The notes beneath the pieces are model-generated. The model saw nothing but the letters and a program-made list of their open reading frames with translations, was not told the DNA's origin and made no database searches. Both the position numbers and the translations under genes were made by a program. From Undaria pinnatifida (lineage: Eukaryota; Sar; Phaeophyceae; Laminariales; Alariaceae), in assembly GCA_012845835.1 (NCBI GenBank), contig JABAKD010000016.1, positions 22,738,573-22,802,572 of the forward strand: a stretch of 64,000 nucleotides of DNA. Reading direction: 5' to 3'. Of this stretch, positions 18,170-60,574 are shown piece by piece. The stretch's first letter is position 1; each line of letters begins with the position of its first letter.

Positions 18170-18231
18170 CGCACACGCCAGAGGGGTCGACCTGTGGAGC
18201 GTCAGCTGAGGTCGAGGGGTCGGAAAAGGTT
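18170..18231 (-). CDS. Candidate C-terminal exon of the left LRR gene
   Basis: A 62-nt stretch lies between AACGCAG and GTAAGA splice sites. It enters in phase 2, matching the preceding LRR exon, and leaves in phase 1. It encodes TFSDPSTSADAPQVDP then SGVCG. The right-arm exon has the same length and phase. Phase-1 exit also fits entry into VWD exon 2, so splicing into the neighbouring gene is possible. Confidence 0.5.
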
Positions 18232-21200
18232 CTGCGTTTGCCAAATCGGATCAAGCAGAGGGTCGTCGACGGGAGTACAGCTTTGGGGTCGGAGCATATC
18301 GTCAGAAGGAACAACTAGTTTTTACACGAGCCAGCGCTGTGCATGCGCGATCAACCATTCCCGTTTCGATCGAAGTTGACTCCACCTTGTACACGAAGAA
18401 AAAAGTACCATATTTAGCGAATCATCAATACGGGTGATTAACAACTCCGTCATGCACCCATCTCTCCGACCTATATTCAGCACTGTGCTATTGCTTGCCA
18501 ACCAGGCCAAGCCAGAGGCCGCAGGCGAATATCACCCACACAGGCATATGAATACCGAGCAATGATCATCCATCACCCACCCACATCACTTACACGGAAG
18601 GGATGCATTGCAGGCCCGAGTTTTCACCTAGATACCTGAACGAAGACAAAGAAAGTTTGCGCAACAGCAAAAAGGTAGACATAGGTTGACGAAACGGGTG
18701 GATGTAAACACGCTAACGCGCTGTGATTGATCAGCGAAGACCAACGATAGGCCCGACCGTGCTCGCAAGAGGCAGCACCAGTGGCTGTCTTCGTGATCGG
18801 CAAGCCATGTGCAGCTGTTGAACTACGTCGTGTTGTTAAACCTTTGGTGTCTGGGTCGTCCGTAAATTGACGGGTAAACAGCGACCACGTGAAAGGGCGT
18901 AATGATACGTGGCCACGTCCTGCGAGGTTTCGCTTGCGTGCACTGAAGTCAGCCAGATCGGTCTGTGACACGACTAAGAGGCACTCACAGCGCCTCCAAG
19001 CTTCCGTCGGACCCCAAGTCTTCGAATACACCTTCGGGAAGCGTCGTCAGAGCGTTGTCAGACAGATGCCTGTCGACTCGGATTGAAAATGAGGGAACAC
19101 AAGTTAAATTGGCATCGCAGATATTTTCCGCTACGCGTGGCCTCCGCCACTGGGGGTATTCTCAATGCTTTTATTGACTCGAATTGAATTAGGGAAATGT
19201 TCAGAAAAGCGCTACCTTCCTACGCTCGTCGTACCTTACACTTTCCTCTACAATGTCACTTAAAATCAAGCCGATATGTGCCATAGCGGGAACCATCGAA
19301 GTCGTATACGGAACGCAGCGGCAAATTTGGCTCGTTACTATACCAGAAAATATTCGTATATACCTCTACAATCTACAGTGGCCACCACGTTCGATTATCC
19401 TACTTTGGCTGGCGGTCGCCAATCCAAATGGTTCATCGTAGTGTGGGCGTTTCTTTCATCGTTGGTGTTTCACAGCCAGTTTTTTTCGTACTGCACATAA
19501 CGGTGAAGGTTGTGGTATGTCGAACCCCAATCGGTTTGCATTGCCTACACCCGCATTGCGTGCTTCCAATCGATGAACATAATGTGTTCCCGGTGCGCCT
19601 TACAGGTACGACGACGCCGGCCATGCACCCCAGGATATATATATATATATATGCCCATGGACTATGGATACATCTAACAGTCCCCTGTGAGTAGGTGTAG
19701 TGCAAATGACGCGTGCTACGACAAAGGGGCACCGCTTTTTCCCTGCGGTCCAACAAAATTGGGCACATGAGACCTTCTGAAAACAAATCTGGAGAAACTT
19801 ACAACTGCTACCGGATGAAAAATCCCATAGCTTAGGTACACCACGAACATAAGGCAAAAACAGGACCTGTTTCCGACAATTTTGCGATGAGGAGCCCAAC
19901 CATTCAGGAACCATTACAGACGGAAAGTGCTAACTCTGCCGTAGCACGTGTCGAATCCGTATATAATATATATATATATACACTGCAGCTGTGATGTCGA
20001 ATGTTTTGTCGAACTCATTTTTGCAAGCTGTGTGACCCTCCGATGGCGCGAATCATGTACCAAATCCCAACGTGAGGGCTCTTTGCTCTCGAACAGCGAA
20101 GAATCCCACAACTGTTGCATCAAAAACTTGGAGGTGATCATTCGATTGTTTTAGACCGGTATAAAGAGTCGGGGCGGTGTCTGCGCCACTCACACTTCTT
20201 GCACAGACGATAAGCCGGTGAAGACGTCCACGGGCAGGCTGGAAATTTCGTTATTTTCCAAGTACCTGACATAGGTTCACGGCGGCATCGGAAAACAGTA
20301 TATTTCATACAGCAGGGGTACATATATCTGTGCGGGATTCTCTAGGTACTAAGATGGCAATGCCAAATGTTGCATTCGTGTTCGGTGAGTGTTTCATGCT
20401 TAGTCGGGAATGGATGCCTTTTTACGGATACCCATTCTGTAGAACAATGAACAAGAAGATGGTATATCCTGCCGCACGACGGAGTGCAGTCGAACCACCC
20501 CACCAAACCGGACACGAAGTTGCCCCCAATTAGCCGTCTCGTTGATGCTAGCACCTGGTACCTTCGGCCGAAACTGTTTCGGGGCGTTCGACATCGTGGC
20601 AGCAGCAAGGATGCTACCACGCAACAGCATACAGACCATGACCGGCCAACCGTGGGCATCGCAGAAACCAATGGGCAAGTATTTTGGGTGACATGACGCG
20701 GTCACCCATCGTCATATTGCGCACCTCCAATGCATGGATATATTTTTATGGTAAAATTTGTTGTGTCCTCTATCTCAACAACACTTAGTGTTAGTTGGTA
20801 ATTCAGTGTCACCTCAACCTTTCGAATCCTACTGATTCAAAATTTTTCTGAACCCCGCTCTAACGTTCTGGTCAAGTCGACAAGGCGCTTGATTTCACCG
20901 TAATTTCTCTCCGGTTAGGAGAATCGACCGTTCAGCCTAAACTACCACAGAGAACAACGCGTGGTTCAACCACGGTCTTTCTGTGTAATGTGCAGGTCAT
21001 TTCGCGCCTTGGCTACGGTAGAGTAGAAGTCAAAAGAGCGTGTACCAACTTTCAAGGGTAGCTTCTCGTCATACTCACAGATGGGTCAGAGCTCCCAGAT
21101 CGGCGAAGATGTTCGATGGAAGGGTTTCCAGATTGTTTCCATAAAGGTACCTTATGCACGTGACGGAGGCCGTGGCGGCGGGAGGGTAAAAATATAACCG

Positions 21201-24200
21201 AGTCAACAATCGTGAACAAGTAATATGGTGTCGCCGGTGACAGTGCATTAACGCGGGGTTGTGGAACCATGTCCCGTGTTTGTTGTGCGAGCAGTAGGTC
21301 GCCTACGCCCCTCCTACTGTACACTTTCCCCCACAACGTGACGTGAAATGACGCCGATCTGTGCCTTAGGGGGAACCATTGAAGTCGTAATTGACACGTA
21401 GTGCCATATCTGGCCCGTTACTATACCGTATCTAACTCTGCAAGTGGCCACCGCGTTCTATTGGCTTACTTTAACGGGCGGTCGCCAATCCAAATGTTTC
21501 GTAGTGGTGTAGGCGTTTCTTTTATCGTTGGTGTTTTATAGAGAGTTTTATCGTAATGCATAATATATGGGTGAAGGGGTGTGGTATGTCAAACCTCAAT
21601 CGTTTTGCACTGCCTACACCTGCATCGTGTGCTTGCAATCGATGAACATAATGTACTTCAGGTATCCGGCCACGCACCCCAAGATATATGGGCCCATGGA
21701 CCATGGATACATCTGACAGTCCCTGATGGTTAGCTGTAGTGTAGAAAATGCGTGCTACGACAAAGGGGCACCGCTTGCTTTCTAAGGGCCAACAAAACTG
21801 TGCGCACATATTCAGAGAAACTTGCAACTGCTACCGGATACAAAATCTCATAGCCTAGGTACACCACGACCATCAGGTAAAAACGCGACTTGTTTCCGAC
21901 TATTTTGCGATCAGGAGCACAACCATTCAGGAACCATTTCAGACAGAAAGAGCTACCTCTGTCGTAGCCCACGTCAAATACGTATATGCGCCAAATCCCA
22001 ACGTGAGGGCCGCTTGCGTTCGAACGGCAAAGCACCTCACAAATGTTGCATTAAAAACATATAGATGAGCATTTGTTTGGTTTAGACCGGTGCAGTCTAT
22101 AGGGTCGGGGTGGTACCTGCGGCACTCACAATTCCTCCATAGACGATAAGCCAGTGAAGACGTCCGCGGGCAGGCTGGAAATTTGGTTATCTTCCAACAA
22201 CCTGACATAGTTTCACGGCGGCATCGGAAGACAGTATATTTCATACAACAGGGGTACAGATATCTGTGCGGGATTCTCTAGGTACCAAGATGGCAATGCA
22301 AAATGTTGCATTTGCGTTCGGTGAGTGTTCCATGCTTGGTTGTTAAGGGGTGCCTTTTACGGATACCCATTCTGTAGCACAATGAACAAATAGAAGGCAT
22401 ATCCTGCCGCACGACGGAGTGCAGTCGAACCACTCCGCCAAACCGGACACGAAGTTGCCCCCAATTAGCCGTCTCGTTGATGCTAGCACCTGGTACCTTC
22501 GGCCGAAACTGTTTCGGGGCGTTCGACAGCGTGGCAGCAGCAAGGACGCTACCCCGCAACTGTATACAGACCATGACCGGCCAACGGTGAACATAGCAGA
22601 AGCCAATACGAAGTATTTTGGGTGACATGACGCGGTCACCTTCTGTTTATCGCGCACCTCCCACACATGGATATATTTGAATGGTAGAAGTTGTTGTCTT
22701 TCCTTTGTCAACAAGTGTTAGTTGGTACAGCAGTGCCACCTCAACCTTTCAAAACCTACTGGTATATAGTCTCGTGAACCCTGCTATAATCTCGTGGAGT
22801 AATTGACAAGGCGCGCAGTTTCTTCGTTATTTCTCTCCGGTTAGAAGCATCGACCGTTCAGCCTGAATTACTCCAGAGACCAACGTGTGGTCCAACCGCG
22901 GTCTGTTTGCTTGATGTGCCGGTCATTTTACGCATTTAAAATATTTGGGTAGAAGGGAAGAGAGCGTGTACCAACTTTCAAGGGTAGCTTCTCGTTATAC
23001 TCACAGACGTTTCACAGCCCCCAGATTGGCGAAGATGTTCGATGGAAGCGTTACCAGGCTGTTTTCATAGAGATACCTTCATGTACGTGACGGGAGCCGT
23101 GGCGGTGGGAGAGTAAAAATGTAGCCGAGTCAACAATCGTAAACAAGCAATTTAGTGTCGTCGGTGACAGTTCATTCACGTAGGTTAGCGGTACGCCAAA
23201 CATACATGTCCCGGGTTTGTCGGGCGAGCAGTAGTTCCACATTTGAGTAGGTGATGATCGAATGCTAAACATGAAAAGTGAAGGGCTGGGGCAGGAGCGG
23301 TCAGTGCCACATGACAGATCGGCCACCGAGTATTATGTGGTGACATTGACTTTGCAGGACGATGTCATTGTTACCGGGTTGATGGACCAACATAATTGGA
23401 CTTACAATAAAGTCCATGCTCCACACTCGTGCGTTGTGCTTGATTCGGTGCAAATTGTCGCGCGTTTGAGAGGACTGCCTGGTGACAGCTGTGTTGGACA
23501 GCAACGCCCATGAGCACGCAACCTTCATCTTTCGGGTTAGCATTAGGTGTCTGTCATCGAGGCGGATGGGGGGGATGTTTCGTTCGTGTAGCAGCTACCT
23601 GTAAGAGAGAATTTCTGACTTGGGGGGAAGGCAGGGAGTTCACACCGGTATCCCAAGCAAAACAACACCGGTTTTAGCGTTGGCGGGGCACTTAGAGCTG
23701 CCGATGTTGTAGTGCTGCAGTGCCACCTCAACTCCTCCAACCCTACTGGTGTATTGGTTCGTGAACCCTCCTCTAACCTCTTGGAGAAATCGGCAAGGCG
23801 CTCTGTTTCCCCGTCGCTTCTCTCCGGTTGACATCATCGATCGTTCAGCCTAAAATGTTCCAGAGACCAACGTGTGGTTCAACCACGGTCTGTCTGCGTA
23901 ATGTGCCGGTCATTTCGTGCATTGGAAACGGGAGAGTAGGAGTAAAGAGGGCGTGCACCAATTTCCAAAGGTTGCTTCTTGTTTTACTCACAGACGGGTC
24001 AGAGTTCCCAGATCGGCGAAGATGTCCGATGGAAGCGTCACCAGGTTGTTTCTGCTAAGGTACCTAAGGTAGATGACGAAAGCGGTGGCGGCGTGAGGGT
24101 AAAAACGTAAGCCGGTCAACAATCGTAAACAAGTGTTATGGTGTCGTCGGTGACAGTTTATTCACGAGGGTTTGTGGTACGGCGAACATCCATGTCGAGT

Positions 24201-27200
24201 GCTCGTTGTCCAAGCTGTAGTTCCTACATTAATTTTTTTGGTAGGTGACGATCGAGTGCTCAACATAAAAAGTATAGGCTGCGGCAGGAGTCGTCAGTAC
24301 CATTAGATAGATACTTCCCCGAGCAATGCGTGGTGACATTGACTTCGCAGAGCGTTGTCGCTATTACACGTTTAATGGGCTAACCCAAGTGGGCTTGAAT
24401 TACATTATTTCCTCCACACTTGTGCGTTGTGCTTGATTCGGTGCGTACTGTCGCGCGTTTGAGTGTACTGCATTTTGACAGCTGTGTTGGACAGCAACGC
24501 CAATAGGCGCGAAACCTCCCGTATTTGGAATTGCATTTGGGATCTGTCATCGAGGCGGGTGGGGGGGGGGGGGGTTCTTCGTGTAGCAGCTTCCTGTCAG
24601 AGATAATTTTCAAGTGGGGGGGGCAGTCGTGGGGTTCACACTGGTATCAGAAGCAAACGCCCCGCAGTTTTAGCCTTGGTGCACTACAAGTTGAGGCCGT
24701 CGTAGTACTGAAGTGCCACCTAGACCCTTCAATATCCATTGGTACAAAACTTCGTGAACCCTGCTCTAACCTCTTGGGTGTAATCGACAAGGCGCGGCGA
24801 TTCTCCGTCCCATCTATCCGGTTAGAATCATCAACCGTTCAGCCCGAACTCCTCCAGGGAACAACGCGGGGTTCATCCACGATCTGTTTGCGTAATGTGA
24901 TGGGTCATTTCGCGTCTTGTAAACGGCAACGTAGAAGTGTAGGGAGCGTGTACCAACTTTCAAGAATAGCTTCTCGTTACACTCACAAACGTTCCAAAGA
25001 TGCCAAACCGGCGAAGACGTCCGATGGAAGAGTTGCCAGGTTGTTTCCAAAAAGGTACCTTATATACGTGACGGAAGCCGTGGCGGCGGAAGGGTAAAAT
25101 TGTAACCGGGTCAACAATGGTGAATAAATATTATGGTGTCGTCGGTGAGAGTTCATTGACGTGGGCTAGTGGAACGCCGAACATCCATGTCTCGTGTTTG
25201 TGCGAGCAGTAGTTTCCACATTTGGGTAGGTGATGCTCGAATATTGAATATATTGACTAAAGCATGGGGCTGAGGCATCAGCGGTCACTACCATGAGCAG
25301 ACTGTCTGTTGACAGTTGTGTTGGACAGCAGCACCCATGCACACGGAACCTTCCGTATTTGGGTTTGCATTTGGGATCTGCTTTTGAGGCGGGTGTGGGG
25401 GTGTTTCGTTCGTGTAGTAGTATCCTGCCAGAGAAAATTTCTATATGGGGGGGGGAGTCGTGGGGTTCACACTGGTATCGCGAGTATCGGAATGAAACGA
25501 CCGGCGGTTTGAACCTTGGTGCACTACAAGGTGAGGCCGTCGTAGTACTGAAGTGCCACCCCAACCTTTCAAAACCTGTTGGTACAACATTTCGTGAACC
25601 AGGCCCTAACCTCTTGGGAGTAATCGACAAGGTGCGGCGTTTGTCCGTCTTATCTATCCGGTTAGAAGCATCGACCGTTCAGCATGAACTTCCCCAGAGG
25701 ACAACGCGTGGTTCAACCACGGTCTGTTTGTGTAATGTGATTGTCATTTCGTGCCTTGGAAACGGTAGAGCAGAAATGAACAGAGCGTGTACCCGCTTTC
25801 AAGCCTAGCTTATCGACATACTCACAAATGGGTCACAGCTCCCAGATCGGCGAAAATGTTTGATGGAAGTGTTTCCAGGTTGTTGTCATCGAGACCCCTT
25901 AAACATGTGACGGAAGCCGGGCGCCGGCGAAGGTAAAAATGTCACCGGGTCAACGATAGTGAACAAGTATTTTCGTGTTGTCGGTGACAGTTTATTAACG
26001 TGGGTTAGTGGTACGCCGAACATTCATGTCCCGTGTTTGTTGTGCGAGCAGTAGTTCCCACTTTTGGGTAGGTGATGATCGAATACTAAACGTAAAAAAA
26101 CAAAGGGCAGAGCAGCAGCGGTAACTACCATAAGACAGGGCGGCCACCGGGAAATATGTAGTGACATTGCCTTTGCAGGGCGTTATCGCTGTTACACGGT
26201 TGACGTACTAACACAAGTGGGCGTATAATATAACCCCTGCTCCACACAACCCAACCTCGTGCTTTATGGTTAATGTGATGCGGACTGCCGCGCGTTTGAG
26301 CGCACTGACAGTTGACAGCTGTGTTGGACAGCAACGCCCATGGCCACGGAACTTCACATATCCGGGTGGGGTGGTGAGTCTTTCGTGTAGCAGCTTCCTG
26401 CCAGAGGGAATTTTCAAGTGGGGGGGGAGTCGTGGGGTTCACAATAGTACCGGAAGCAAACAACGCCCCGCGGTTTTAGCCTTGGTGTACTATAAGGTGA
26501 GGCCGTCGTAGTACTGATGAGCCACCTCAATCTTTCAAATCATGTTGGTGAACCCTGCTCTAACCTCTTAGGAGTGATGGACAAGGCGCGGCGTTTCTCC
26601 GTCCCATCGTTCCGGTTAGATCATCGACCGTTCAGCCTAAACTCCTCCAGAGTACAACGCGTGGTTCAACCACGATCTGTTTGAGTAGTGTGATGGTCAT
26701 GTCGTGCCCTGGAAACGGTAAGGCAGAATGATTAGAGCGTGTGCCAACTTTCAACGGTAGCTTCTTGTTATACTCACAGATTGGTCAGAGCTCCAAGATC
26801 GGCGAAGACGTTCGATGGAAGTGTTTCCAGGTTGTTTATATAAAGGTACCTTATGAACGTGACGGAAGCCGTGGCGTCGCGAGGGAAAAATGTAACTGGG
26901 TCAACAATAGTGAGCAGGCATTATGGTGTTGTCGGTAACAGTATATTAACGTGGGTTAGTGGTACGTCGAACCTTACGTTCCATGTTTTGTTGTGCGAGC
27001 GTGAGTTTCCACTTTTGGGTAGGTAATGATCGAATGCCTATTATAAAAATTATAGGACTGAAGCAGGAGCGGTAACTACCATATGACAAATCGGCCACCG
27101 AGCTTTGTGTATTGAAATTGACTTTGCAGGGCGTTTTCGCTGTAACACGGTTGATGTACCAACACAAGTGGGCTTGAAAAACAACCATGCCCCACACAAC

Positions 27201-30200
27201 CTAACCTTGTGTGTTGTTTTCGATTCTGTGCGGACTGCCGCGTGTTTGAGCCGAATACCAGTTGACATCGGTGTTGGACAGCAACTCCCCCGCGTAGGAA
27301 CCTTACGTATACGGGTTAGTATTTGGGATCTGTCATCGAGGTGGGTCGGGGGGTATTCCCTTAGTGTTGCAGCTTCCTGTCAGAGAGAATTCAAAAAGGG
27401 GGGGGGGGGGGAATCGGGAGGTTCAGAGTAACATCGGAAGCGGAAGTCCGGCAGTTTTAGCGTTGGCGATGCACTATTTGCTGCCGCCGTCGACCTCTCC
27501 CGATGCCGTCTATTTGTTTTCGCGGTAGTGATGCTGACCACGAGGCTTTTTCTCTTGTCATCTTCAACGTGTTTTGGTCGTACCCTTTGCTCTCTCTGGT
27601 GAGGCCACAACATGGAAAAAAAAAACTAAAGAGCGCTGCCATTCACAACAAATGGAGTAGGCACAAGGTCTCGAAGTCCGTCTTACGAGCAGGTTTCGGA
27701 AGGATGCAGTCCACCCTATGTGAGACTCGACGAACATCTCACGGAGCTTTGCGCTTGGTGCATGCAACGTCTGCCTGGTTGGTGAAACCCTGACGTGCTC
27801 CGTCCCGGCACGGTAGGGATGCGAGGATTTCAAGTCATATGCCTACGGCCATCACAAACTGAGTACACCCGCCCCCGCCAGAGCCGCTGTAGTGCTATAC
27901 ATGTAACCTTTGAATTGGCGAGGGTGCGCGTGTAACATAATTCTTGATTTAAAACGTGTTGGGGCGTGTTTAACAGCGCCGGATATCTTTCGTGCAGCCG
28001 TATCTCGCACGGACCGCCTTTCAGCCGCCAAACCAACCGTTAAAAGTTCATCTACCCTCCAGGTGTCGTGGACTCAGCATCTGGTCCAGCGAAACGCTCC
28101 ATTTAAACCTGCGTCACCACGGAATCCCGGCTGTATCTGGTTGTGCGCGTTTTTTTTTTATCCTACACCGTCAGATTTATCCCTTCTCCAACACCGTCAG
28201 ATTTAACCCCTTGAATGATTTATAGCTTCCACGCACAATTGCCCGTCCGTCCGCCCCCCCCCACTCCCCCCCCGCCCCCCCCTTCTCCAATCCCGCTCCT
28301 TTTTCATCACAACCAGGCCCCCACGTCCTTCAAAACTCCGCCTTCCCTCCAACGGTTATTCGACTTACGTGATTCACTTGATAAACGGATGCTTTTCCTT
28401 CCACAGCTGTCATATTTGTCCTCCTCAACAACGGGTTTTACAGCTTCCGCGCACAGACTGCCTAACATCACCCTGTTGACCCTGATAGCTACAATGCAGT
28501 TGCAAGGGTAGTCGACGACCTATATCCTCAATGAGCACACACAACCCGTAAGACGCGCGACCGGAGTATCACACACAGCTTGCAAATATGAGTTTCGATC
28601 AGAAATTCGATCTCACAGCTTGAGTGTACTTACATTTTTTATATAAGGAACAACCTCAGAGGTCCTCTGTAGGGAAAAAACGTTGTTGACTATTGCAACG
28701 ACAGCAACAAATACAACGAAAACAGCAACAATATTGCCCGACAAGAGATAGTGCAGCAATGATGAAAACATGACGTCTGGGGCAATGCAACAATTCGCCC
28801 GAAAACCGGTCTCGTCCCGCATGGGTGTCAAACCGAGAGTTGCAAGCGACTTTGAAGTTGAGCGAAAATCGAGAGACCAGAAGCGAGACTCACAAGCTCG
28901 TCAGGGCGTCCATAGACCCGAAAATGCCAGAAGGTAACGTTGAAAACTCGTTGCTACTCAGTTGTCTGCAGAATGGCAATAATCAAGTTGAGTGCAGTGC
29001 GAAGGGCGGCGGCAGAGAGGGGGAATCAGAATCGCCAGCGACATGTAAGCACGAGACGTCGTTAGCAAACGTTGTTGTCTTTGAATGCGCACGGTTAGGC
29101 GTATTCGCAATAACGGACACACTTGCGAGACTGACTGACTTGGGCGACTCCAGCCCGCACATGCATCCTACTCATGTCGCTAACACTCTGGAGGTTTATG
29201 CGCCCCAAAATGCATGCCTAGTTCGATATCGGAAGCCGATACGTACCGTTATTGTTGCTGTTTGATTTACGTTAACGATGCATCACATGAAAAAGAAGTA
29301 AGAGATCTTTCAGATACGCTAAAATTGCCTTACACTCAGAGTTGAGACTCAAACTATTGTTCCCGCGCTGCTGGAAAAATGTAGCTATTCCGAACACCAA
29401 GCATCGACATACTGCTGCGCCACTGTTGACCATGCTCTGTACTCACGGCAGCGGAGATTGGACAGACGCAAGACGTGATGGACGTCTGTCTCATTACAAC
29501 TCTCAACAGAATGCAGGTAAGCCACGCTTTGGTCCACACCAACAGCCGTAAAACGGAGAAACAGACAAGGGACAGTTAACGCGCAATTTGAATATTGGAA
29601 CACAATATTCCTAGGCGCATGTTGCAAGAGGGTTTACTTCTCCATTCGCCGAAGAACTGCAGCTTGGATTGTTCACTGGGGTGAAAGTTTCCAATTTTTT
29701 CCCACGGTTTGGTTTGGGTTTCAAAATGGACCACGACAGATCGGTATGAAGGTCTCAAGGTCAGCAGCTTCACAAAATGGTCATCGTCCCCTATCGTAAA
29801 CCCTACCGCATTCAATTCTTAGCACTATCTACAGATACACGTTCATGGACAGGCTTACTGACATCGCATAGCTAACGGTGTTGGTTAGCATTGCCTTCGA
29901 CGCGAAAGCATGAGTTACAGTGATTACGAAATACTTTTCTTGCCCGTCTTCGAACAACAGAGAAACGTACATGGTAGTGATGCCGCTACGTCCAATATTG
30001 TCGAAACATGTGCTGAGGTCGAGGAGGTCAGCGTCCGTAAGCTGACAGCCGGCGAGGACCCTGAATTGTGACGCAAGGGAGAGTGAAATGTTGATTGTCG
30101 ATGAGGCTGGGATATACCTCTACGTTGCGTATTTGTCGAGCTGGGGATGCCGCTGTCTTCGTGCTGTAGCGTTCGCACGGGAGGGCGTTCAAAAGCTACT

Positions 30201-31089: not shown

Positions 31090-31661
31090 AACGAAAGCAT
31101 ACCCGACACCCGCACCGTCCGTGCACGAAACGCGCCGGTTAGGGCCCATGTAAACGAAGAAAATATGAACCTTAGAGTAAAACTTGAAAGCAAGTGGATC
31201 ACGAATATACCACAGTGATGTTAGTTGGGGCGTCCAAACGGGACAAATGCGTATGGAAACATCCCTGACTTCACAACGAGTAAACAGTCCGCAGGAAGCA
31301 CGGCGTCGATGCACCCCCGAAACTAAGGCAGAGACGGCGCCTCAGCTTTAGAAAAAGGGCTGCGTGCGTGACCACAAAACTACGCGACCATGCCCTGCTT
31401 CTACAAGGGAACCGGTATTCTAAGCGGCAAAGGAGAACTTATAAAAAGTGCAGATGCTGGCCACATGGCCAAATAAATGATTTCAACAGCCGGCAATTGC
31501 AAGCTGTACAGTAGCACTCATTTCCATAGGGGGGGCGGGATTTTAAGCGGCATGTTTGACTGCGGTTATGAGAGCTGCATTCCACTAGCATCAGTCGCAT
31601 CTTGTTTGTGTGTTATCTGCGTTGTGCTTCTAGGCGCGTCGTGGGTACGATAGGTCAAGTA

Positions 31662-31778
31662 CCTTTGGTGCAAGAACGTGCTGTCGATGACGGGGCTCCA
31701 AACCGTGAAATCGTCCAGATGTCGTTTTTGCTTTGCATGAACGAAAACACCGTAAATATGGGCCATGTAAATGGCCAA
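31662..31778 (-). other. Possible upstream exon conserved between arms, left copy
   Basis: The minus strand reads VFVHAKQKRHLDDF and SPVIDSTFLH. The right arm at 46257-46373 reads VFVHAKQVRHLDDF and SPVIDNTFLH. About half the differences in this core are synonymous in this frame, and far fewer in the opposite-strand frame. It may be a 5' exon of the LRR gene or of an upstream gene. The start codon is not conserved (TTG here). Confidence 0.3.
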
Positions 31779-33136: not shown

Positions 33137-33317
33137 GTTAAACTAGCTCTTATGCATCTAATCCCAAATCCCAGGGTTTCCTGCTGAGTATCTGATTCAT
33201 TGATTTTGTTCCGGTCGCGTCCAATAGCTCAGGTCAATATGCACAACGGAGATATCGGTCTTCTCCACATTCGTGCAACAGTAGAGACTTGATGTAGCTC
33301 CTATATGTTGGGTGCGC

Positions 33318-42835: not shown

Positions 42836-42837
42836 AT

Positions 42838-43085: not shown

Positions 43086-43114
43086 ACTGTAGCATTATTC
43101 AAAATACGTACTAT

Positions 43115-46256: not shown

Positions 46257-46373
46257 ATGGCCGTAAACATTGCCAACATTGAGAACGTTTTTGTTCATGC
46301 AAAACAAGTACGACATCTCGACGACTTCAAGGTAAGGAGCCCCGTCATCGACAACACGTTCCTGCACAAAAAA
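46257..46373 (+). other. Possible upstream exon conserved between arms, right copy
   Basis: It starts at an ATG and reads VFVHAKQVRHLDDF and SPVIDNTFLHKK up to a GTACTT donor-like site. Partner of 31662-31778. It lies 0.6 kb upstream of exon A. Confidence 0.3.
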
Positions 46374-46965: not shown

Positions 46966-47087
46966 ATGGCTGAATCAGCGCTCTCCAGGATATCATTAAC
47001 CAGCGTCGAATACTTGACTCAGGATGGTCCGGTTCATCAAGACGCTTACAGCTTCATTGGCGGTATCCTTCAGTATCTCTGTGAACG
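46966..47087 (+). CDS. Putative first exon A, right
   Basis: It starts ATG (MAESALSRISLTSVEYL) and runs 40 codons open to a GTGAGC donor in phase 2, the phase used by all following LRR exons. No signal peptide is evident, so an upstream exon may be missing from the model. Confidence 0.6.
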
Positions 47088-50000: not shown

Positions 50001-53000
50001 CATCCTTCCTATAACTTCTTGTAGAACGGACTTCGAGACTTCATACCTACTTTCTTTCTTGTGGATGACAGCGCTCTTGAGGTATTGTTTTTCGTGTTGT
50101 GGCCACACCAGAGACAGCAATGGGTACAACCAAAACACGTTACAGGTGTAAAAAACAAAATCGTGGTCAGCATCACTACGACCACAACGGGGACGCCTAG
50201 CACCCGGATATCACCAACGGTATAGGCCAGTCAGCGTCAACAAATGGACGGCATCGGAAGATTTCGACGGCGGCAGGTTTCAGTGCATCGCCAACGCTAA
50301 ACCTGCCGGACTTTCGCTTCAATATCACTCTGAACCCCCCGACTTCCCCCCCCACTTGAAAATATTCTTCGACAGGAAGCTGCTACACGAAGGGAGCACC
50401 TCCCAACCCGCCTCGATGACAGATCCCAATTGCTAACCCGAATACCGAAGGTTCCGTGCTCAACTGGGTATTGCTCTCCAACACAGCTGTCAACTGGTAT
50501 TCCGCTCAAACACGCGACATTCCGCACCAAATCAAACACAACGCACAGGGTTAGGTTGTGTAGAGCATGGATAATAAAAAAGCCTACTTATAGAAGTCCA
50601 TTGACCGTGTTACAGCGAAACCGCCCTGGAAAATCAATGTCACTACATCACGCTCGGTGTGGCTGATCTGTCCTATGGTAGTGACCGCTCCTACGTCAGC
50701 CCTAATTTTTTTTTATGTTTAGCATTTGATCATTACCTACCCAAATATGGAAACTACTGCTCGCACAACAAACACGGGACATGGATGATCGGCGTACCAC
50801 TAACCCACGTTAATAAACTGTCACCGACGACACCACAAGACCTGTTTGTGAGTGATGACCCGGCTATATTTTGACCCTCCCGCCGCCACGGCTTCCGTCA
50901 CGTACATAAGGTGTCTTTATGATAACAACCTGGAAACGCTTCCATCGAACATCTTCGCGGATCTGGGAGCTGTAACCCATCTGTGAGTATAACGAGAAGC
51001 TACCTTCGAACTTTGGTACACGCTCTCACCACTTTTACTTAGTCGTTTCCAAGGCACGAAATAAACGACACCTTACACAGACAGACCGTGGTTGAACCAC
51101 GCATTGTTCTCTGGAGTAGTTTAGTCTAAACGGTCGGTCATTTCAACTGCATAGAAAACACGGAGAAACGCCGCGCCTTGTCGATTACTCTAAGAGGTTA
51201 GAACAAGGTTCACGAAATGTTGTACCAACAGGTCTTGAAAGGTTGAGGTGGCACTTCAGTTCTACGACGACATGAACTTTTAGTGCGAACAAGGCTAAAA
51301 CGGCCGGGCGTTTGCTTCCGATACCAGTGTGAACCCCGCGACTTCCCCCCCACTTTGAAATCCTCTTTGACAGGAAGCTGCTACACGAAGGGAATACCCC
51401 CCCTACCCGTCTCAATGATAGATCTCAAATGCTAACCCGAAAACCGAAGGTTCCGTGCCCATGGGCGTTGCTTTCCAACGCATCTGTCAACAGGTAGTCC
51501 ACTCAAACGCGCGACAGTCCGCACAAGATAAAACATAACGCACGGGGTTGGGTTGGGTGGAGCATGTTTTTTTTTACAAGCCCACTTGTGTTAGTCCATC
51601 AACTGTGTAACAATGAAAACGCCCTGCAAAGCCGATGTCACTACTCAATGCTGGGTGGCCGACCTGTCCTATGGTAGTAACCGCTGCTGCATCCGCTCTT
51701 TGTTAAATATTTTTAGTGTTCTACCATCACCTACCCAAACGAATAAACTGCAGCTCGCACAAACACGTGACACGCATGTCCGGCGTACCTCTAACCCACG
51801 TCAATGAACTGTCAATAACGATACCATAATACATGTTCACGATGGTTGACCCGGTTACATTTTACTCTCCCGCCGCCACGGCTTCCGTCCCGTACACAAG
51901 GTACCTTGATCGGAACAACCTGGAAACCCTTCCATCGAACATTTTCGCCGATCTGGGAGCTCTAACCGATCTGTGAGTATAACGAGGAGTTACCCTTGAA
52001 AATTGATACACGCTCTCTTCCCTTCTACTCTACCGTTTCCAAGGCACTAAAAAAACGGCAAATTACACAGATAGACCGTGGTTGAACCACGCGTTGTTCT
52101 TTGGGGTAGTTCGGTCTAAACGGTGGTTAATTTCAACTGCAAAGAAAACACGGAGAAACCCTGCGCCTTGTCGATTACTCTAAGAGGTTAAAGCACGGTT
52201 CCCGAAAATTTGAGCTAACTGGCTTTGAAAGGTTAAGGTGGCACCTCAGTACTACGACGGCATCAATTTATACTGCACCATGTCCAAATCTGTCAGGCGT
52301 TTTCTTCTAGGACCAGTGTGAACCCCACGTATTTCCCATCACTTGAAATTTCTCCCTGACAGTAAGCTGTCACACGAAGGGAATACCCTGCGCACCCGTC
52401 TCAAAGACAGATCTCAAATGCTAACCCGAAAACCGAAGGTTCCGTGGCCATGGGCGTTGCTGTCCAACACTGCTGTCAACAGGGAGTCCACTCAAACGCG
52501 CGACAGTCCGCACGAGATTAAGCACAACGCACAGGGTTAGGTTATGTGGAGCTTGTTTTTTTTTTTTACGCGAACTTGTGCTAGGCCATCAACCGTGTAA
52601 CAGTGAAAACGCCCTGCAAAGTCAATATCACTACGTAATGCTCGTTGGCCGATCTGTCCTATGGTAGTGACCGCTGCTGCATCCGCCCCTTGTTCGATAT
52701 GTTTAGTATTCGATCATCATCTACCCAAATGTGGAAACTACTGCACGCACAAACACGCGACATGGATGTTCGGCGTACCACTAACCCACTAACCCACGTT
52801 AATGAACTGTCACCGACGACAAAATAATACTTGTCTACGATTGTTGATCCGGTTACATTTTGACCCTCCCGTCGCCACGGCTTCCGTCACGTACATAAGG
52901 TACATTGCCAGAAACCACCTGGCCACCCTTCCGTCGAACGTCTTCGCCGGCCTGGGAGCTCTGACCAGTCTGTGAGTACAACGAGAAGCTACCCTTGAAA

Positions 53001-56000
53001 ATGGTGCACGCTCTCTCCATTTCTACTCTACTGTTTCAAAGTCGCGTAATGACGGGCACTTTACACAAACAGTCCGTGGTTGAACTACACCTCGGCCTCT
53101 GAAGCAGTTCAGGCTGAACCGTCGATGATTTTGAACGACGACCAAGACGGAGAAACCCCGAGCCTTATCAATTATTGTCATTGGGTTAGAGCAGGGTTCA
53201 CGATTTTCTTCACCAAGATGCTTTGAAAGGTTGAGGTGGCATTTTCGTACTACGACGGCATCAGCTTGAAGTGCACCAAGGCCCAAACCGCCGGGAGTTT
53301 GCTTCCAGTACCAGCGTGAACCCCGCGACTTCGCCCCCACTTGAAACTTCTCTCTGACAGAAAGCTACTACACGAAAGGAATATCCCCCCACCTGCCTCG
53401 ATGACATATTCCAAGTGCTACCCCGAATACGGAAGGTTCCGTGTCCATGGGCGTTGCTGTCCAACACATCTGTTAACAGGCTGTCCGCTCACACACCAGA
53501 AGGTCCGCACGGAATCAAACACAACGCACAAGTGTGTAGCATAGATCTCAATACAAGCTCACTTGTGTTAGCTATTCAAACGTGTAACAGCGACAACGCG
53601 GTGCAAAGTCAATGTTACTACATATTGCTCGGGGGAGGACCTGTCCTATTGTAGTGACCGCTCCTACTTCAGCCCTAAATTATATATGTTTAGCATTCGA
53701 ACATCACCCACCAAAAAAAAATGTGAAAACTACTGCTCGCACGAAAAGCACGGGACTTCAAAGTTCGGCGTGCCACTAACCCACGTCAATGAACTGTCAC
53801 CGACGACACCATGATAACCGCCAAACGATTGTTGACCCGGCTACATTTCAACCCTCGCGGCGCCACGGCTTCCGTCACGTACCTAAGGTCCCTTAGCAGA
53901 AACAACCTGGCAACTCTTCCATCGGACATCTTCGCTGATCTGGGAGCTGTGACCCGACTGTGAGTATAACGAAAAGCTACCCTTGAAAGTTGATACACGC
54001 TCTCTTTACCTCTACTTTGACGTTTTCAAGGCGCGACATGACTTTCACCTGACACAGACAGACCGTGGTTGAACCACACGTTGGCCACTGGAGCCGGTTA
54101 GGCTGAAACGTCGATGACTCTAACCAGAGAGAAAAGACGGAGAAACCCGGCGCCTTGCCGATTACTCCAAGAGTTTAGAGCATGCTTCACAAAGCTACAT
54201 ACCAGTAGGTTTCGAAAGGCTGAGGTGGCACTTCAATACTACGACGGCGGCAGCATATAGTGCAACGCCAACGCCAAAACCTGTTTGCCTCATCTTCCGA
54301 AACCAGTTTGAACACCCTGCCTTCCCCCCCATTCAGAAATTCTCCCTGACAGGTAGCTTCTACACGAACGAAACGTCACCCCACCTGCCTCGATGGCAGA
54401 TCCCAAATGATAACCCGAATAAAGAAGGTTGCGCGCTCATGGGCGTTACTGTCCAAACACACCTGTCACTAGGCAGTCCACTCAAACACGCGACAATCAG
54501 CACCGAATCGAGCACAAAACGCAGAAGTGCGGAGCGTGGACTTCAATATAAGCCCACTTGTGTTGGTCCGAAACCCGGTAACAGCGAAAACGCCCCGCAA
54601 AGTCAATGTCACCACATAAGTCATGGTGGCCGATCTGTCCTATGGTAGTGACCGCTCTTACTTCAGCCTTTTACTTCTTTTGTTGAGCAATCGATCGTCA
54701 CTTACCAGAATGTGGGAACTAATGCTCGCACGACAAACACGGGACATGGATGTTTGTCGAACCACTAACCAACGTTAATGAACTGCCACCGACGACACCA
54801 TAGTACTTGTTCACGATTGTTGACCCGGTTACATTTTTACCCTCCCGCCGCCACGGCTTCCGTCACGTACATAAGGTATCTTTATGAAAACAACCTGGCA
54901 ACCCTTCCATCGAAGATTTTCGCGGATCTGGGAGCTCTGAACCGTCTGTGAGTATAACGAGACGCTACCCTTTAAAGTTGGTACACGTTCTCTTTCCTTC
55001 TACTCTTATCATTTCCAAGGCACGAAAAGGCCGGCACATTACAGAAACAGACCGTGGTTGGCCCACACGTCGGCCTCAGGAGTAGTTGGGGCTGAACGGT
55101 CGATGATTCTAACCGGAGAGAGTTTACGGAGAAACCCGGCGCCTTGTCGATTACTCCGAGAGGTTAGAGCAGGGTTCCCGAAACTGTAGGCTATACTAGT
55201 AGGTTTTGAATAAGTGAGGTAGCACTGCCGTACCAACTAACACTTGATGACATAGAGGAGATAATAAAAGCTACTAAATATATATATATCCATGCGTGGG
55301 AGGTGCGCAATATGACGGAAGGTGACCGTGTCATGTCACCCAAAACGGTTTGTATTGGTTCCTTCATTACCCACCGTTCGCCGGGTTTGGCCTGTATGTA
55401 CAGCTTCGCGATGGAATCGTTGCTTATGCTACGCTGTCGAACGATCGAAAGAGTTTCATCCGAGGGTACCGAGTGCTAGCATCAACGAGACAACTAATTG
55501 GAGGCAACATCGTGTTCGGTTTGGCGGAGTGGTACGACTGCACTCCGTCGTGCGGCAGGATTTGCCTTCTTCTTGTTTATTGTGCTAGAGAATGTGTATC
55601 CGTAAAAGGCACCCCTTAACGACCAAGCATGAAACACTTACCGAACCCGAATGCAACACTTTGCTTTGCCATCTTGGTACGTGAAGAATCCCGCACAGAT
55701 ATCTGTATCCCTGCTGTATGATGTCTACGGTTTTGCGATGCCGCCGTGAAACTATGTCAGGTTCTTGGAAGATAACCAAATTGCCAGCCTGCCAGTGGAC
55801 GTCCTCATTGGCATATCGTCTGTGGATAGAGTGTGAGTGCCGCGGATACCACCCTGACCATATATACCTGTCGAAACTATAAGAATAATGGTCAACGAAA
55901 AATTTGAGCAACACTTGTTAGATGCTCTGCCGTTCGAGGTCAAAGGGCCTTCACGTTGGGATTTAGTACATATACGGATTTGACGCGTCCTACGACAGAG

Positions 56001-59000
56001 GTAGCACTTTACGTCTGAAATGATTCCTGAATGGTTGTGCTTCTTGTCGTAAAATCGTCGGAAACAGGTCGCGTTTCAGCCTGATGGTCGTGGTGTACCT
56101 AGGCTATGGGACTTTTCATCCGGTAGCAGGTGTAATTTTCTCTAAATGAATATGTGTTATGTTGATGTCTTATGCGCACAGTTTTTTTTCGGACCTCAGA
56201 AAGCAAGCGGGTCCGCTCTGTCGTAGCACGCGTCGTTTGCACTACAACTGGTCAAAGGGAATTGTTAGATGCATCTATAGTCCATGGGCATATATACCCT
56301 GGGATGCATGGCCGGGTGCGCCGTGTCTGTAAGGGACATCGGGAGTACATGGTGTTCATCGATTGCAAGCACACCATGCAGGTGTAGGCAGTGCAAAACG
56401 ATCGGTGTTCGACATACCACACCCCTTCACTCTTATATGCAGTTCGAAAACACTTTCCTTGAAATATCAACGATGCACGAAACGCCTACACTACGGTGAT
56501 CCGTTTCGATTAGTGGCCGCCTGCTAAAGTAGGCCATAATAAAGCGGTTGTCACTCGTATGAGCAGTTGCGAATATCCGCTGGTATAATTGCCGGTCGGA
56601 TATGTCACTGCGTGACGTATACTATCTCGATGGTTCCCTCTATGGCATGAATAGGCGTCATTTCAAACCACATTTTGGTGGAATGTGTACGTTACGATGG
56701 GCGTAGAAAATGTACTGTTCGCACAACAAACACAGGACATGGTACCACAAACCCACGTCAATGAACTGTCACCGACGACACCATAATACTTGTTTACGAT
56801 TGTTGACTCGGTTACACTTTTACCCTTCGTGCCGCCACGGCTTCCGCCACGTACGTAAGGTACCTTTATGAAAACAACCTGGAAACCCTTCCATCGAACG
56901 TCTTCGCTGATTCGGGAGCTCTGACCCAACTGTGAGTATAACGAGAATCTACGCTTGAAAGTTGGTACACGCTCTCTCCACTTCTACTCTACTGTTGCCA
57001 AGGCGCGAAATGACCGGCACATTACTCAGACCGACCGTGGTCCAACCACGCGTTGTTGTCTGGAGTAGTTCATGCTGGATGGTCGATGATTCCAACTGGA
57101 GAATGTAGATTTTTAAAGGTTGATTTGGTACTGCAGTACCAAGTAACAATTGTTGACACGGAGGAAAAATCGAATTCGACAACAAAGAAAAACCATGCGT
57201 GAGGTGAGCAGTATGACGACGGGTGACCGCGTCATGTCACCGAAAATAATTTGCTTTGTTTTCTGCGATGCCCACCGTTTGCCGGGTGCCTGTATCAGAT
57301 GCGGGATAGCATCCTTGCTGGTGCCACGCTGTCGAACGCCCCGAAACAGTTTCAGCTGAGGGTACCAGGTGCTAGCATCAACGAGACGGCTAATTAGAGC
57401 CTAGACAGTCTCCAGCTTGGCGGAGTGGTACGACTGCACTCCGTCGTGCGGCGAGGACTACCTTCTTGTTTATTGTGCTAGAGAAGGGTATCCGTCAAAT
57501 GGACGAGACAAAGCATGAAACACCTACCGAACACTGAAGCAACATTTTGCATTTCCATCTTAGCACCTAGAGAATCCCGCACCTATATCTGTACCCCTGC
57601 TATATAAAATAATACTTGATTACGATTGTTAACCCGGTCACATCTTTACCGTCCCGCTGCTATGGCTTTCGCCACGTACGTAAGGTACCTTAATGGAAAC
57701 AACCTGGTGACCCTTCCATCGAACGTTTTTGCCGATCTGGGAGCTCTGACCCATCTGTGAGTATAACAAGAAGCTGTCCTTGAAAGTTGGTACACGCTCT
57801 CTTTGCCTTCACTATACCGTTGCGAAGGCGCGAAATGACGGGCGCATGACACTGGCAGACCGTGGTTGAACCACGCGTTGTTGTCTGGAGTTGTTCAGGC
57901 TGGACGGTCGATGATTCTAAGTGGAGAAAAAAGACTGAGAAACCAGGCGCCTTTTCGATTACTCTAAGAGGTTAGAGCAAGGTTCACGAACATTTCGAAA
58001 ATGTTGATTTTGAAAGGTTAAGGTGGTACTGCAGTACCGAGTAACGCTCGCTGACATACGTATAGAAAAAACAAATTTGACAATGAAAAATAAAAAAAAA
58101 TGCGTGGGAGGTGTGCAGTATGACGACGGGTGACCGCGTCATGTCACCCGAAATACTTCGCTTTGGTTTCTGCGATGCCCACCGTCTGCCGGTTGTGGCC
58201 TGTACACAGCTTCGGGATAGCATCCTTGCTGCTGCCACGCTGTCGAATGCCCCGAAACAGTTTCGGCCGAGGATACCGGGTGCTAGCATCAACGAGACGG
58301 CTAATTTGAGCCTGAATCGTCTCCAGTTTGGCGGAGTGGTGACTGCACTCAGTCGTGTGGCAGGGTATACCTTCTACTTGTTCATTGTGCTGGAGAATGG
58401 GTATCGGTAAAAAGGCATGCTTCAACGACTAAGCATGAAACACTCAATGAACACGAATGCAACATCTTGCATTGCCATCTTAGTACCTAGAGATTCCGCA
58501 CAGATATCGGTACCCCTGCGATATGAAACCAACTTTTTTCCGATGCCGCCGTGAAACTATGTCAGGTATTTAGAAGATAACGAAATTTCCAGCCTGCCCG
58601 TGGACGTCTTCACCGGCTTATCATCTGTGCAGGAAGTGTAAGTGCCGCAGATACCACCCCGACTCTATATACTAGTCTAAAACAAAAAAATGATCATCTC
58701 CATATTTTTTATGCAATATGCGGGAGATGCGTTGCCGTTCGAGGTCAAGCGCCCCTCACGTTGGGTTTTAGTACATATACGGATTTGACGCGTTTTACGA
58801 CAGAGGTAGTACTTTTCGTCGGAAATCGGGCCTGCATATTTGCGCTCCTAATATCAAAATCGTCGGAAACAGGTCGCGTTTTTGCCTGACGGTCGTGGTG
58901 TACCTAGGCTATAGGATTTTTCATCCGGGAGCAGGCGTAATTTTCCTTAAATCAATATGTTTTTAGGTAAGAGCGGTCTTACGCGCACAGTTTTGTTGGA

Positions 59001-60574
59001 CCTCTGAAAGCAAGCGGTGCCGCTCTGTCGTAGCACGCGTCGTTTTCACTACAACCAGTCACAGGAGATTGTTAGATGTATCCATAGTCTATTGGCCAAA
59101 CACCCTGGGGTGCATGGCCGGGTGCGTCGTGTCTGTAAGGGCATCGAGAGTACATGATGTTCATCGATTGCAAGCACACCATACAGGTGTAGGCAGTGCA
59201 AAACGATTGGTGTTCGACATACCACACCCTTTTACCCTTACAGGCAGTACGATAATATTTCCTTTGACACGCCAACGATGCAAGAATCGCCCACGCTGCG
59301 ATGAACTATTTGGATTGGCGATCGCCCGCCAAAGTAGGCCAATAGAACGCGGTGGCCACTGATAGGGTGTAGAGGTAGATTATAATACTTGTTGGCATAG
59401 TAACGGGCCAGATATGGAGCTGCGTTCCGTATGCGACTTCGATGGTTTACCTTATGGCATAAACCGGCTTCATTTCAAGTCACATTGTGATGAAAAGAGT
59501 ACACGGTACGAGGAGCGTGGGAATATCGAGCTATTCTAAACATTTCGCTAGTTCAATTGAAGTCAATAAGGGCAGCGAGAATATCCCCAGTAGCGGAGGC
59601 CACCCGTAGACGGTATATTTTTGCGATGCCAATTTAACTTGTGTCCCCTTCTTTGTTGTTAATCCGAGTCGACAGGCATCTGTCTTCCAACGCTCTGACA
59701 ACGCTTCCCGAAGGTGTATTTGAGGACTTGGGGTCTAACGGAGGTTTACAGGCGCTGTGAGTGCCCCTTAGTCGTGTCACAGACCGGTCTTGCTGACTTA
59801 AGTGCACACGAGCAAAACCACGCAGAACGTGGCTTCGTATCATTACGCCCTCTCACGTGGTCGCTGTTGACCTTTCATTTTACGGACGATCCAGACACCT
59901 AAGGTTTGGCAACACGACGTAGTCCAACAGCTGCACATGGCTTGGCGATCACAAATACAGCCACTGTTGATGCCTCTGGAGAGCACGGTCGGGCTTACCG
60001 TTTGACTTCGCTGGTCAATTACAGCGCGTTGGCGTGTTGACATTCACCCGTTTTGTCAACCCATGTCTGCCTTTGCTGTTGCGCAAACCATCTCTTTCTT
60101 CGTTCAGGTATCTAGGTGAAAACTCGGGCCTGCAATGCATTCCCTCCGTGTAAGTGATGTGGGTGGGGGATGGATGATCATTGTTTTTGTTCATATGCAT
60201 GTATGGGTGATATTCGCTTGCGGCTTCTGGCTTGGCCTAGGTTGCAAGCAAATTGTACAGTGCTGTATATGGAGCAAGGAGATTAGTGCATGACGGAGTT
60301 GTCCATCACTCGCTTTGATCATTGGCTAGTCTATATGGTATTTTTTTTCCGTGTACAATGTGGAGTCAACGCTACTTGAGACGGAAATGGTAAATCGCGC
60401 ATGCACAGCGAAGGCTCGTGTACAGACTAGTTTTTCTTTCGGACGATCTGCCCTGAACAACAGCTGTGCTCGCATCGTCAACCCCCTTCTTGAGCCGGTT
60501 TGGCAAACGCAGAACCTTCTCCGACGCCTCGATCTCAGCTGACGCTCCACAGGTGGACCCCTCTAGCGTGTGCG
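46966..60574 (+). CDS. LRR protein gene, right copy (candidate immune receptor)
   Basis: The model has exon A (46966-47087), cap exon B (48027-48173), nine 72-nt LRR exons (50911 to 58566), an 81-nt LRR exon (59676-59756), the 42-nt LQCIPS cap exon (60108-60149) and a candidate C-terminal exon (60513-60574). All junctions from A to the cap are phase 2 and no stop interrupts any exon. The consensus repeat, YLYxNNLxTLPSNxFADLGALTxL, is a 24-residue plant/algal-type LRR. In brown algae such shuffled LRR exons are known from candidate pathogen receptors (Ectocarpus LRR-ROCO and related genes). No ROCO, NB-ARC or kinase part is present here, so a ligand-binding secreted or surface protein is inferred. 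Alternatively the mRNA may continue into the VWD exon downstream. Confidence 0.75.
47303..47398 (-). mobile_element. Short retroposon-like insertion, right arm only
   Basis: About 95 bases interrupt intron A-B relative to the left arm. On the minus strand it ends in a run of 15 A (47304-47318) and contains CATCCTCCGGCGGATG. A related copy lies at 35149-35222. The poly(A) end and arm-specific presence indicate retroposition after the arms formed. Confidence 0.6.
48027..48173 (+). CDS. LRR N-terminal cap exon B, right
   Basis: A 147-nt exon, phase 2 at both ends, with acceptor GTAGAG and donor GTATAT (weaker than GTACGT on the left). It encodes GCGLTDGDLSDLSTCFDDIG then RSGITVM, leading directly into the first LRR. 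Confidence 0.75.
49383..49631 (+). other. Hydrophobic open frame conserved between arms, right copy
   Basis: Partner of 28613-28831, inside the exon B to R1 intron. The membrane-like segment VVAVFVVSVVIVPIVNNVL is kept. Unrecognised. Confidence 0.25.
50911..50982 (+). CDS. LRR exon R1, subfamily 1
   Basis: A 72-nt phase-2 exon starting CLYDNNLETLPSN, with acceptor CATAAG and donor GTGAGT. Confidence 0.9.
51901..51972 (+). CDS. LRR exon R2, subfamily 1
   Basis: A 72-nt phase-2 exon starting YLDRNNLETLPSN. Confidence 0.9.
52900..52971 (+). CDS. LRR exon R3, subfamily 1
   Basis: A 72-nt phase-2 exon starting YIARNHLATLPSN. Confidence 0.9.
53888..53959 (+). CDS. LRR exon R4, subfamily 1
   Basis: A 72-nt phase-2 exon starting SLSRNNLATLPSD. 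Confidence 0.9.
54876..54947 (+). CDS. LRR exon R5, subfamily 1
   Basis: A 72-nt phase-2 exon starting YLYENNLATLPSK. Confidence 0.9.
55761..55832 (+). CDS. LRR exon R6, subfamily 2
   Basis: A 72-nt phase-2 exon starting FLEDNQIASLPVD, with acceptor ACTATGTCAG and donor GTGAGT. Confidence 0.9.
56860..56931 (+). CDS. LRR exon R7, subfamily 1
   Basis: A 72-nt phase-2 exon starting YLYENNLETLPSN. The usual FADLGAL is FADSGAL here, replacing a structural leucine. Confidence 0.88.
57685..57756 (+). CDS. LRR exon R8, subfamily 1 (no left counterpart)
   Basis: A 72-nt phase-2 exon starting YLNGNNLVTLPSN. It is the extra repeat of the right array. Its upstream intron is a chimera of two intron modules joined near 57600-57612. 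Confidence 0.9.
58566..58637 (+). CDS. LRR exon R9, subfamily 2
   Basis: A 72-nt phase-2 exon starting YLEDNEISSLPVD, with a GTAAGT donor. It is nearly the same as left exon 20194-20265. Confidence 0.9.
59676..59756 (+). CDS. LRR exon R10 (81 nt)
   Basis: It encodes a 27-residue LRR starting HLSSNALTTLPEG, with a GSNGG insertion before the last leucine. Partner of 18989-19069. Confidence 0.9.
60108..60149 (+). CDS. Terminal LRR cap exon, right
   Basis: A 42-nt phase-2 exon encoding YLGENSGLQCIPS, with a GTAAGT donor. Same protein as the left. Confidence 0.85.
60513..60574 (+). CDS. Candidate C-terminal exon of the right LRR gene
   Basis: 62 nt, phase 2 in and phase 1 out, encoding TFSDASISADAPQVDP then SSVCG. 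An alternative acceptor at 60552 would instead read through to a stop at 60706 (WTPLACAVGIGG...). The first option is better conserved with the left arm. Confidence 0.45.

What the first reader, a model, noticed from the sequence alone, without database searches (positions are those of the whole stretch)
18170..60574. Mirrored arrays of one-LRR-per-exon cassettes, a candidate shuffling immune-receptor locus
Seen directly: 17 exons of exactly 72 nt, all phase 2, each coding one 24-residue LRR. They are arranged in tandem with duplicated introns, eight on the minus strand (26778 to 20194) and nine on the plus strand (50911 to 58566). The same upstream cap exon and the same 81- and 42-nt terminal exons frame both arrays. 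Symmetric phase lets cassettes be added, lost or swapped freely. Known background: exon shuffling of LRR exons was proposed for brown algal candidate pathogen receptors. The head-opposed duplicate arrays are the unusual part, because they would allow exchange between arms and inversion as well as unequal crossing-over.
Basis: partly seen in the sequence, partly recalled or inferred. Interest (0 to 1): 0.9.

Follow-up and report, generated by a model that had tools for sequence, protein, structure and literature searches.

The report
Kelp cluster of modular LRR genes
Two mirror-image genes in a brown-algal genome build a predicted secreted protein from one-repeat-per-exon cassettes and belong to a larger gene cluster; in two of four close gene pairs the likely binding-face residues changed faster than the surrounding introns, as expected of a recognition repertoire, although a role in immunity is not shown.

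Summary
In detail: 17 of 17 exons are 72 nt with AG/GT borders and phase-2 introns; no shuffle of 100 reaches their scores. The annotation stops short. Each array is the N-terminal part of a 15-exon coding stretch ending in a ~307-residue GDPH domain, matched among named sources only in brown algae. The pair is 2 of 15 copies, one split, in a 1.9-Mb cluster; the genome gives 131 matches, fragments included.

Evolutionary cassette turnover is supported: arrays differ between paralogs, by one cassette even between genes whose terminal exons are 98.5% identical. Amino-acid change at concave LRR positions exceeds intron change in two of four close pairs (P = 6.1e-8 and 3.4e-7); two show none.

Exchange between the mirrored arms is not supported: left cassettes group with a gene 0.9 Mb away, right ones with another. 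Somatic recombination is untested. The left copy has a stop in its signal-peptide exon, the right a 73-nt first LRR exon.

Best reading: a birth-and-death family of secreted recognition proteins; immunity is inference. 72-bp LRR exons are published for brown-algal ROCO genes (PMC11378527); gene type and cluster are the new part.

The parts
30968..31031 (-). Left signal-peptide exon, MVRLAQTLTAS*AIHLTVSVN, with an in-frame TAG (30998-30996)
   Evidence: start resembles Undaria model P0001
29971..30060 (-). Left cap exon (90 nt)
28894..28965 (-).
20194..26849 (-). Left array of eight 72-nt LRR exons, layout AAAAA-B-A-B
18989..19069 (-). Left 81-nt LRR exon
18594..18635 (-). Left 42-nt exon, end of the LRR domain
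18170..18231 (-). Left 62-nt linker exon
17733..17810 (-). Left 78-nt cysteine-rich exon (weak EGF resemblance, E 1.6)
15719..16644 (-). Left terminal exon: CGDPHM... domain of 307 residues and stop
47024..47087 (+). Right signal-peptide exon, MVRFIKTLTASLAVSFSISVN, open
48084..48173 (+). Right cap exon (90 nt)
49239..49311 (+). Right counterpart of exon X, 73 nt, frameshifted; splice sites kept
50911..58637 (+). Right array of nine 72-nt LRR exons, layout AAAAA-B-AA-B
59676..59756 (+). Right 81-nt LRR exon
60108..60149 (+). Right 42-nt exon
60513..60574 (+). Right 62-nt linker exon
60932..61009 (+). Right 78-nt cysteine-rich exon
62091..63016 (+). Right terminal exon: CGDPHM... domain of 307 residues and stop
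1..34935 (.). Left arm of the inverted duplication, with insertions (continues about 8.4 kb beyond the window start)
43123..64000 (.). Right arm of the inverted duplication (continues about 22.7 kb beyond the window end)

Best explanation
The locus is two divergent members of a large brown-algal family of predicted secreted LRR proteins: signal peptide, cap, LRRs coded one per exon, a cysteine-rich linker and a conserved GDPH domain. Because the cassette exons are symmetric (72 nt, phase 2) with homologous introns, unequal exchange or conversion within a gene adds, removes or homogenises whole repeats without breaking the frame, while whole genes duplicate in tandem and in inverted orientation. 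In some lineages amino-acid changes pile up at the concave residues that would touch a ligand. The result is a germline repertoire of extracellular binding proteins, most likely for foreign or non-self ligands. Shown: anatomy, cluster, cassette number variation, sister cassettes within genes, fast change at concave positions in some pairs. Inferred: splicing, secretion, ligand binding, immune or other recognition role.
For: Both spliced frames run 641 residues without a stop after in-silico splicing, the right one with its 73-nt exon X left out by me. Terminal exon between the arms: dN 0.026, dS 0.191, omega 0.14. 131 genome matches to the terminal domain; 15 copies (one split) on C22 21.76-23.63 Mb; 17 of 17 copies at 90% identity or more are stop-free there; 18 of 18 loci compared are stop-free and keep the AG acceptor. 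Layouts differ among 8 arrays; P44 (23630+) and the 23524+ gene differ by one cassette though their terminal exons are 98.5% identical. Concave positions 23,1,3,4,6 were fixed before those genes were fetched. P44 v 23524+: concave pN 0.28 (20 of 71), pS 0.079 (8 of 101), intron 0.067 (160 of 2381), other positions 0.035; P 4.5e-4 v S and 6.1e-8 v intron. WR v P45 (the two cassettes that the tree pairs): pN 0.62 (15.5 of 25), pS 0.25, intron 0.17; P 2.6e-3 and 3.4e-7. Over 36 A and 16 B cassettes the nonsynonymous rate at 23,1,3,4 is 1.9-2.0 times the intron rate, and 0.27-0.33 times outside the concave set.
Against: No transcript was available. WL v P40 shows no excess (concave pN 0.083, intron 0.155) and 22174+ v 22093+ none (0 of 62); pooled over the four pairs P is 0.015 against synonymous and 9.2e-6 against intron change. 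On the intron trees omega at 23,1,3,4 is 1.03 (A) and 1.89 (B, P 0.22), neither significantly above 1; with position 6, 0.89 and 2.41 (P 0.09). 6 of 75 cassettes read in 11 arrays are frame-broken, spread over 6 of the 11 arrays, and the left signal-peptide exon has a stop, so several copies may be pseudogenes. The signal-peptide exon and the cap do not join in phase, so an exon is missing from the model or the model is wrong there.
Confidence: 0.66

Rival explanations
1. The proteins are extracellular recognition proteins of another kind: gamete or self recognition, or cell-wall or enzyme inhibitors, rather than immune receptors. The same cassette turnover and concave-face change would follow from co-evolution with a mate, a neighbour or an enzyme.
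For: Predicted secreted, no hydrophobic tail after the GDPH domain by eye; in relatives the domain is joined to WSC and vWA modules, often extracellular (recalled). Nothing here points to a pathogen.
Against: Nothing tested here separates it from an immune role.
Confidence: 0.3
2. The window pair is an old, partly decayed by-product: ordinary tandem and inverted gene duplication with relaxed constraint on repeats, no recognition function for these two copies.
For: Stop in the left signal-peptide exon, 73-nt exon X on the right; no excess change in the WL-P40 pair; 6 of 75 cassettes broken.
Against: Omega 0.14 in the terminal exon; 641-residue open frames in both copies; other LRR positions conserved while concave ones change in WR-P45. 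Relaxation alone does not exceed the intron rate.
Confidence: 0.25
3. The mirrored arms exchange cassettes with each other or invert.
For: The arms are 75-83% identical and colinear. The terminal exon has one 200-column stretch at 99% between arms.
Against: Cassettes of each arm have closer relatives elsewhere, and so has the left terminal exon region; the conserved stretch is not significant (P 0.11); layouts of the arms differ by one A cassette (and exon X).
Confidence: 0.06
4. Somatic recombination assembles LRR cassettes in cells, as proposed for brown-algal receptors.
For: Homologous repeats at about 1-kb spacing would allow it. No direct evidence.
Against: One assembly shows one arrangement; germline paralogs already explain the variation. 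PMC11378527 (section 15 read) says somatic recombinant ROCO loci have not been reported.
Confidence: 0.03

Closest known systems
Brown-algal ROCO LRR-GTPases with shuffling 72-bp LRR exons (Zambounis 2012, not held, known through PMC11378527; Teng 2024 = PMC11378527, abstract, sections 11 and 15 and passages seen)
   Same: 72-bp exons, one LRR each; four published positively selected sites on the concave side, which correspond by my reading of the motif to 23, 1, 3, 4 here.
   Different: No Roc or COR domain; signal peptide and GDPH domain instead. The paper puts the codons at nucleotides 3-71 of the exon; here they are at 2-70, and by my reading the exon border falls at another place in the repeat.
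15 non-ROCO sequences with shuffling LRR exons in Saccharina japonica, mentioned in PMC11378527 (section 15)
   Same: 72-bp LRR exons outside ROCO genes in a kelp; the paper says most contain only LRR motifs.
   Different: Here the array is joined in frame to a cap, a cysteine-rich linker and a GDPH domain, in a cluster. Whether those 15 are the same family was not tested.
Undaria pinnatifida gene models Undpi1/7003 and 7001 (P0001, P0002)
   Same: Same GDPH domain (82% and 79% over the queried part) and similar last LRRs; P0001 also has the signal peptide and a cap-like stretch.
   Different: Only a few LRRs; a repeat of P0002 resembles, by eye, that of the C28-cluster gene L046 rather than the expanded array.
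Lamprey variable lymphocyte receptors (recalled)
   Same: Extracellular LRR proteins of modular repeats with variation on the concave face; VLR chains are among the many LRR chains matched.
   Different: No evidence of somatic assembly; repeats are separate exons of complete germline genes.

Membership tests
Brown-algal ROCO LRR-GTPase | ROC-COR tandem domain | tested here: not met
   Pfam scan of the left spliced protein gives 9 families up to E 10, none Roc or COR
Brown-algal ROCO LRR-GTPase | 72-bp exons each coding one LRR | tested here: met
   17 of 17
Brown-algal ROCO LRR-GTPase | Same exon register and phase as published (codons at nucleotides 3-71) | tested here: inconclusive
   Here codons at 2-70; compared with the paper's text only, no ROCO DNA was read
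NB-ARC-TPR candidate receptors | NB-ARC and TPR domains | tested here: not met
   Absent from the Pfam result
Extracellular LRR protein | LRR domain by curated profile | tested here: met
   LRR_8 E 6.5e-52, above its cut-off
Extracellular LRR protein | Signal peptide | tested here: inconclusive
   Right exon reads MVRFIKTLTASLAVSFSISVN and resembles the start of P0001; left has a stop; join to the cap not closed; no predictor was run
von Willebrand type D domain | Match to the VWD profile | tested here: not met
   No VWD match or for 31 relatives; GDPH likeness is recalled
von Willebrand type D domain | VWD fold | not tested
   Structure prediction was busy at every try
Variable lymphocyte receptor | Somatic assembly of LRR cassettes | not testable with these tools
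   Single assembly, no reads

The most novel reading that the evidence does not exclude
A brown alga carries a megabase cluster of secreted LRR genes that acts as an anticipatory extracellular recognition repertoire: new binding faces arise by duplicating single-repeat exons and by strong selection on concave residues, and broken cassettes are skipped because every exon is frame-neutral.
Probability: 0.3. Interest if true: 0.9.

Novelty: new variant of a known kind. Interest (0 to 1): 0.72.

Why it matters
[quoted passage not shown] A large family of predicted secreted LRR proteins with countable repeat cassettes, and with concave residues changing faster than introns in some pairs, makes the question of recognition repertoires in this lineage directly testable by strain resequencing, RNA-seq and binding assays.

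Tried and rejected
One search looked for a whole LRR motif inside each exon and missed the array, because the exon border cuts the motif; searches replaced it. One search built trees from loci of which the minus-strand ones were not turned; its plus/minus split is an artefact and is replaced. I suspected gene conversion in the terminal exon from a 99% stretch; rejected, P 0.11. Without A2 altogether P is 8.9e-7. The A3 cassette of P44 was dropped because its partner in 23524+ is uncertain (flanks 18-21% different). The cassettes labelled a (3 of 55) were left out of the trees; P40 p4 was kept with its last codons out of register. Species could not be named: 511,146,479 bases in 68 contigs is close to but not the Undaria assembly of PMC7058681 (511,280,173 bp, 114 scaffolds; passages seen). 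A genome map of cassettes and the exon register of ROCO genes were never obtained. The open frames listed were not searched, so other genes in the arms are not excluded. Rfam gave 0 matches at gathering threshold. Paper searches (listings seen); I saw no description of this cluster in them; Zambounis 2012 is not held.

Full report
Check. The 17 exons are real and at the stated places. In the chance control 16 of the 17 and exon X pass score 35, the seventeenth scores 25, and the best of 100 shuffles is 20. In-silico splicing gives two 15-exon coding stretches of 1927 nt each, both open to the final stop after 641 residues. The left includes exon X; on the right I left its counterpart out, since it is 73 nt, and the right has one more A cassette. 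The signal-peptide exon was found from the Undaria model P0001; the left one carries a TAG. The join from that exon to the cap does not close in phase, so the 5' end is not settled.

The protein. LRR_8 matches at E 6.5e-52, and the top solved chains are mostly extracellular LRR proteins, with intracellular SHOC-2 also listed. The terminal 307-residue domain has no Pfam match. It has 46 relatives at E 1e-3 or better, of which those with an organism name are brown algae (Undaria, Scytosiphon, Ectocarpus, Sphacelaria); in the Pfam column LRRs are with it in 3 of 46, and WSC, vWA, ankyrin or band-7 type domains in five others. GDPH likeness to VWD is recalled, not tested by fold.

The locus. The window is C22:22738573-22802572 of a 511-Mb genome. 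The arms are 75-83% identical and reach about 43 kb each with insertions; no further cassette at score 35 lies within 40 kb outside the window. The inner border falls near the end of a dispersed ~430-bp repeat.

The family. The terminal exon has 131 matches in the genome, fragments included, a lower bound. Of these, 17 are at 90% identity or more, 14 of them on C22 between 21.8 and 23.6 Mb, where one split copy at 86-88% makes 15; a second cluster lies on C28. Orientation along C22 is mixed. Sister pairs at 100% include tandem ones (22093+/22174+, 23524+/23630+) and a divergent one (23002-/23152+). The window pair are not sisters there: left groups with P40 (21846-) at 100; right has no close partner.

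Cassette turnover. Layouts of 8 arrays, broken cassettes counted: WL and P40 AAAAA-B-A-B, WR AAAAA-B-AA-B, P41, P42 and P43 AA-B-AA-B, P44 AA-B-A-B, P45 AAAA-B-A-B. Arrays were read in 10-kb or 8-kb stretches, so upstream cassettes may be missed. A C28 member shows one A-like cassette (L046). Intron-flank trees (36 A, 16 B cassettes) pair WL with P40 at p5, p3, p2 and q1, and WR with P45 at p1 and q; B1 and B2 of one gene are sisters in P43, P45 (100), P40 (90), P42 (79) and WL (split of 91), not in WR, P41 or P44. The recent pair P44/23524+ differs by one A cassette; the pair 22174+/22093+ has the same layout in the part read, apart from exon X, which lies outside the 22174+ stretch or was not found, and identical LRR residues in 5 of 5 exons.

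Selection. From the 13 window A cassettes I took positions 23,1,3,4,6 as concave (concave nonsynonymous distance 0.48, or 0.62 without position 6; other 0.12; intron mean 0.34, median 0.31). On trees of 36 and 16 cassettes the nonsynonymous rate at 23,1,3,4 is 1.9-2.0 times the intron rate, but synonymous changes are raised too in the A type, so omega is 1.03 (A) and 1.89 (B), not significant. Four close pairs: P44/23524+ and WR/P45 show excess over synonymous and intron change, WL/P40 and 22174+/22093+ none; pooled P 0.015 against synonymous and 9.2e-6 against intron change. In the three P44/23524+ exons displayed, most changes sit in the first third of the exon. Positive selection is therefore likely in some lineages, not shown for the family.

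Decay. 6 of 75 cassettes (types X, A, B) read in 11 arrays break the frame or lose a splice site (exon X of WR 73 nt, P40 p4 77 nt, 23524+ A2 79 nt, and P42 p1, P43 X, P45 p4), in 6 of 11 arrays; one more has an in-frame 6-nt loss. Skipping each would leave the frame intact; whether that happens is unknown.

Comparison. PMC11378527 (abstract, sections 11 and 15, passages) already reports 72-bp one-LRR exons, alternative splicing and four selected concave sites in ROCO genes, and 15 non-ROCO sequences with such exons in S. japonica. What is added here is the gene type, the cluster, the cassette variation among close paralogs and the pairwise excess at concave sites.

Noticed in passing
window 28217-28642, 34642-34951, 37528-37964, 38374-38816, 43112-43416: Five copies of a ~430-bp dispersed repeat (two shorter); two of them end within about 20 bases of the inner borders of the inverted duplication, hinting at repeat-mediated rearrangement.
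   Followed up: partly
window 2366-3821: Open frames that read like copia-type retrotransposon reverse transcriptase and RNase H remnants (recognised by eye, no search).
   Followed up: no
G000 C28 9.0-14.6 Mb, C30 1.58-2.33 Mb, C23 6.2-6.4 Mb: Further groups of the terminal domain, most at 77-84% identity on C28 and C30 and mostly 61-65% on C23.
   Followed up: partly
window 48256-48442: Two-copy 95-bp tandem repeat just downstream of the right cap exon, with no counterpart reported on the left.
   Followed up: no
L044 2959, L047 2035: Exon X of both genes is followed by GC instead of GT at the expected donor; not counted among the six broken cassettes.
   Followed up: no
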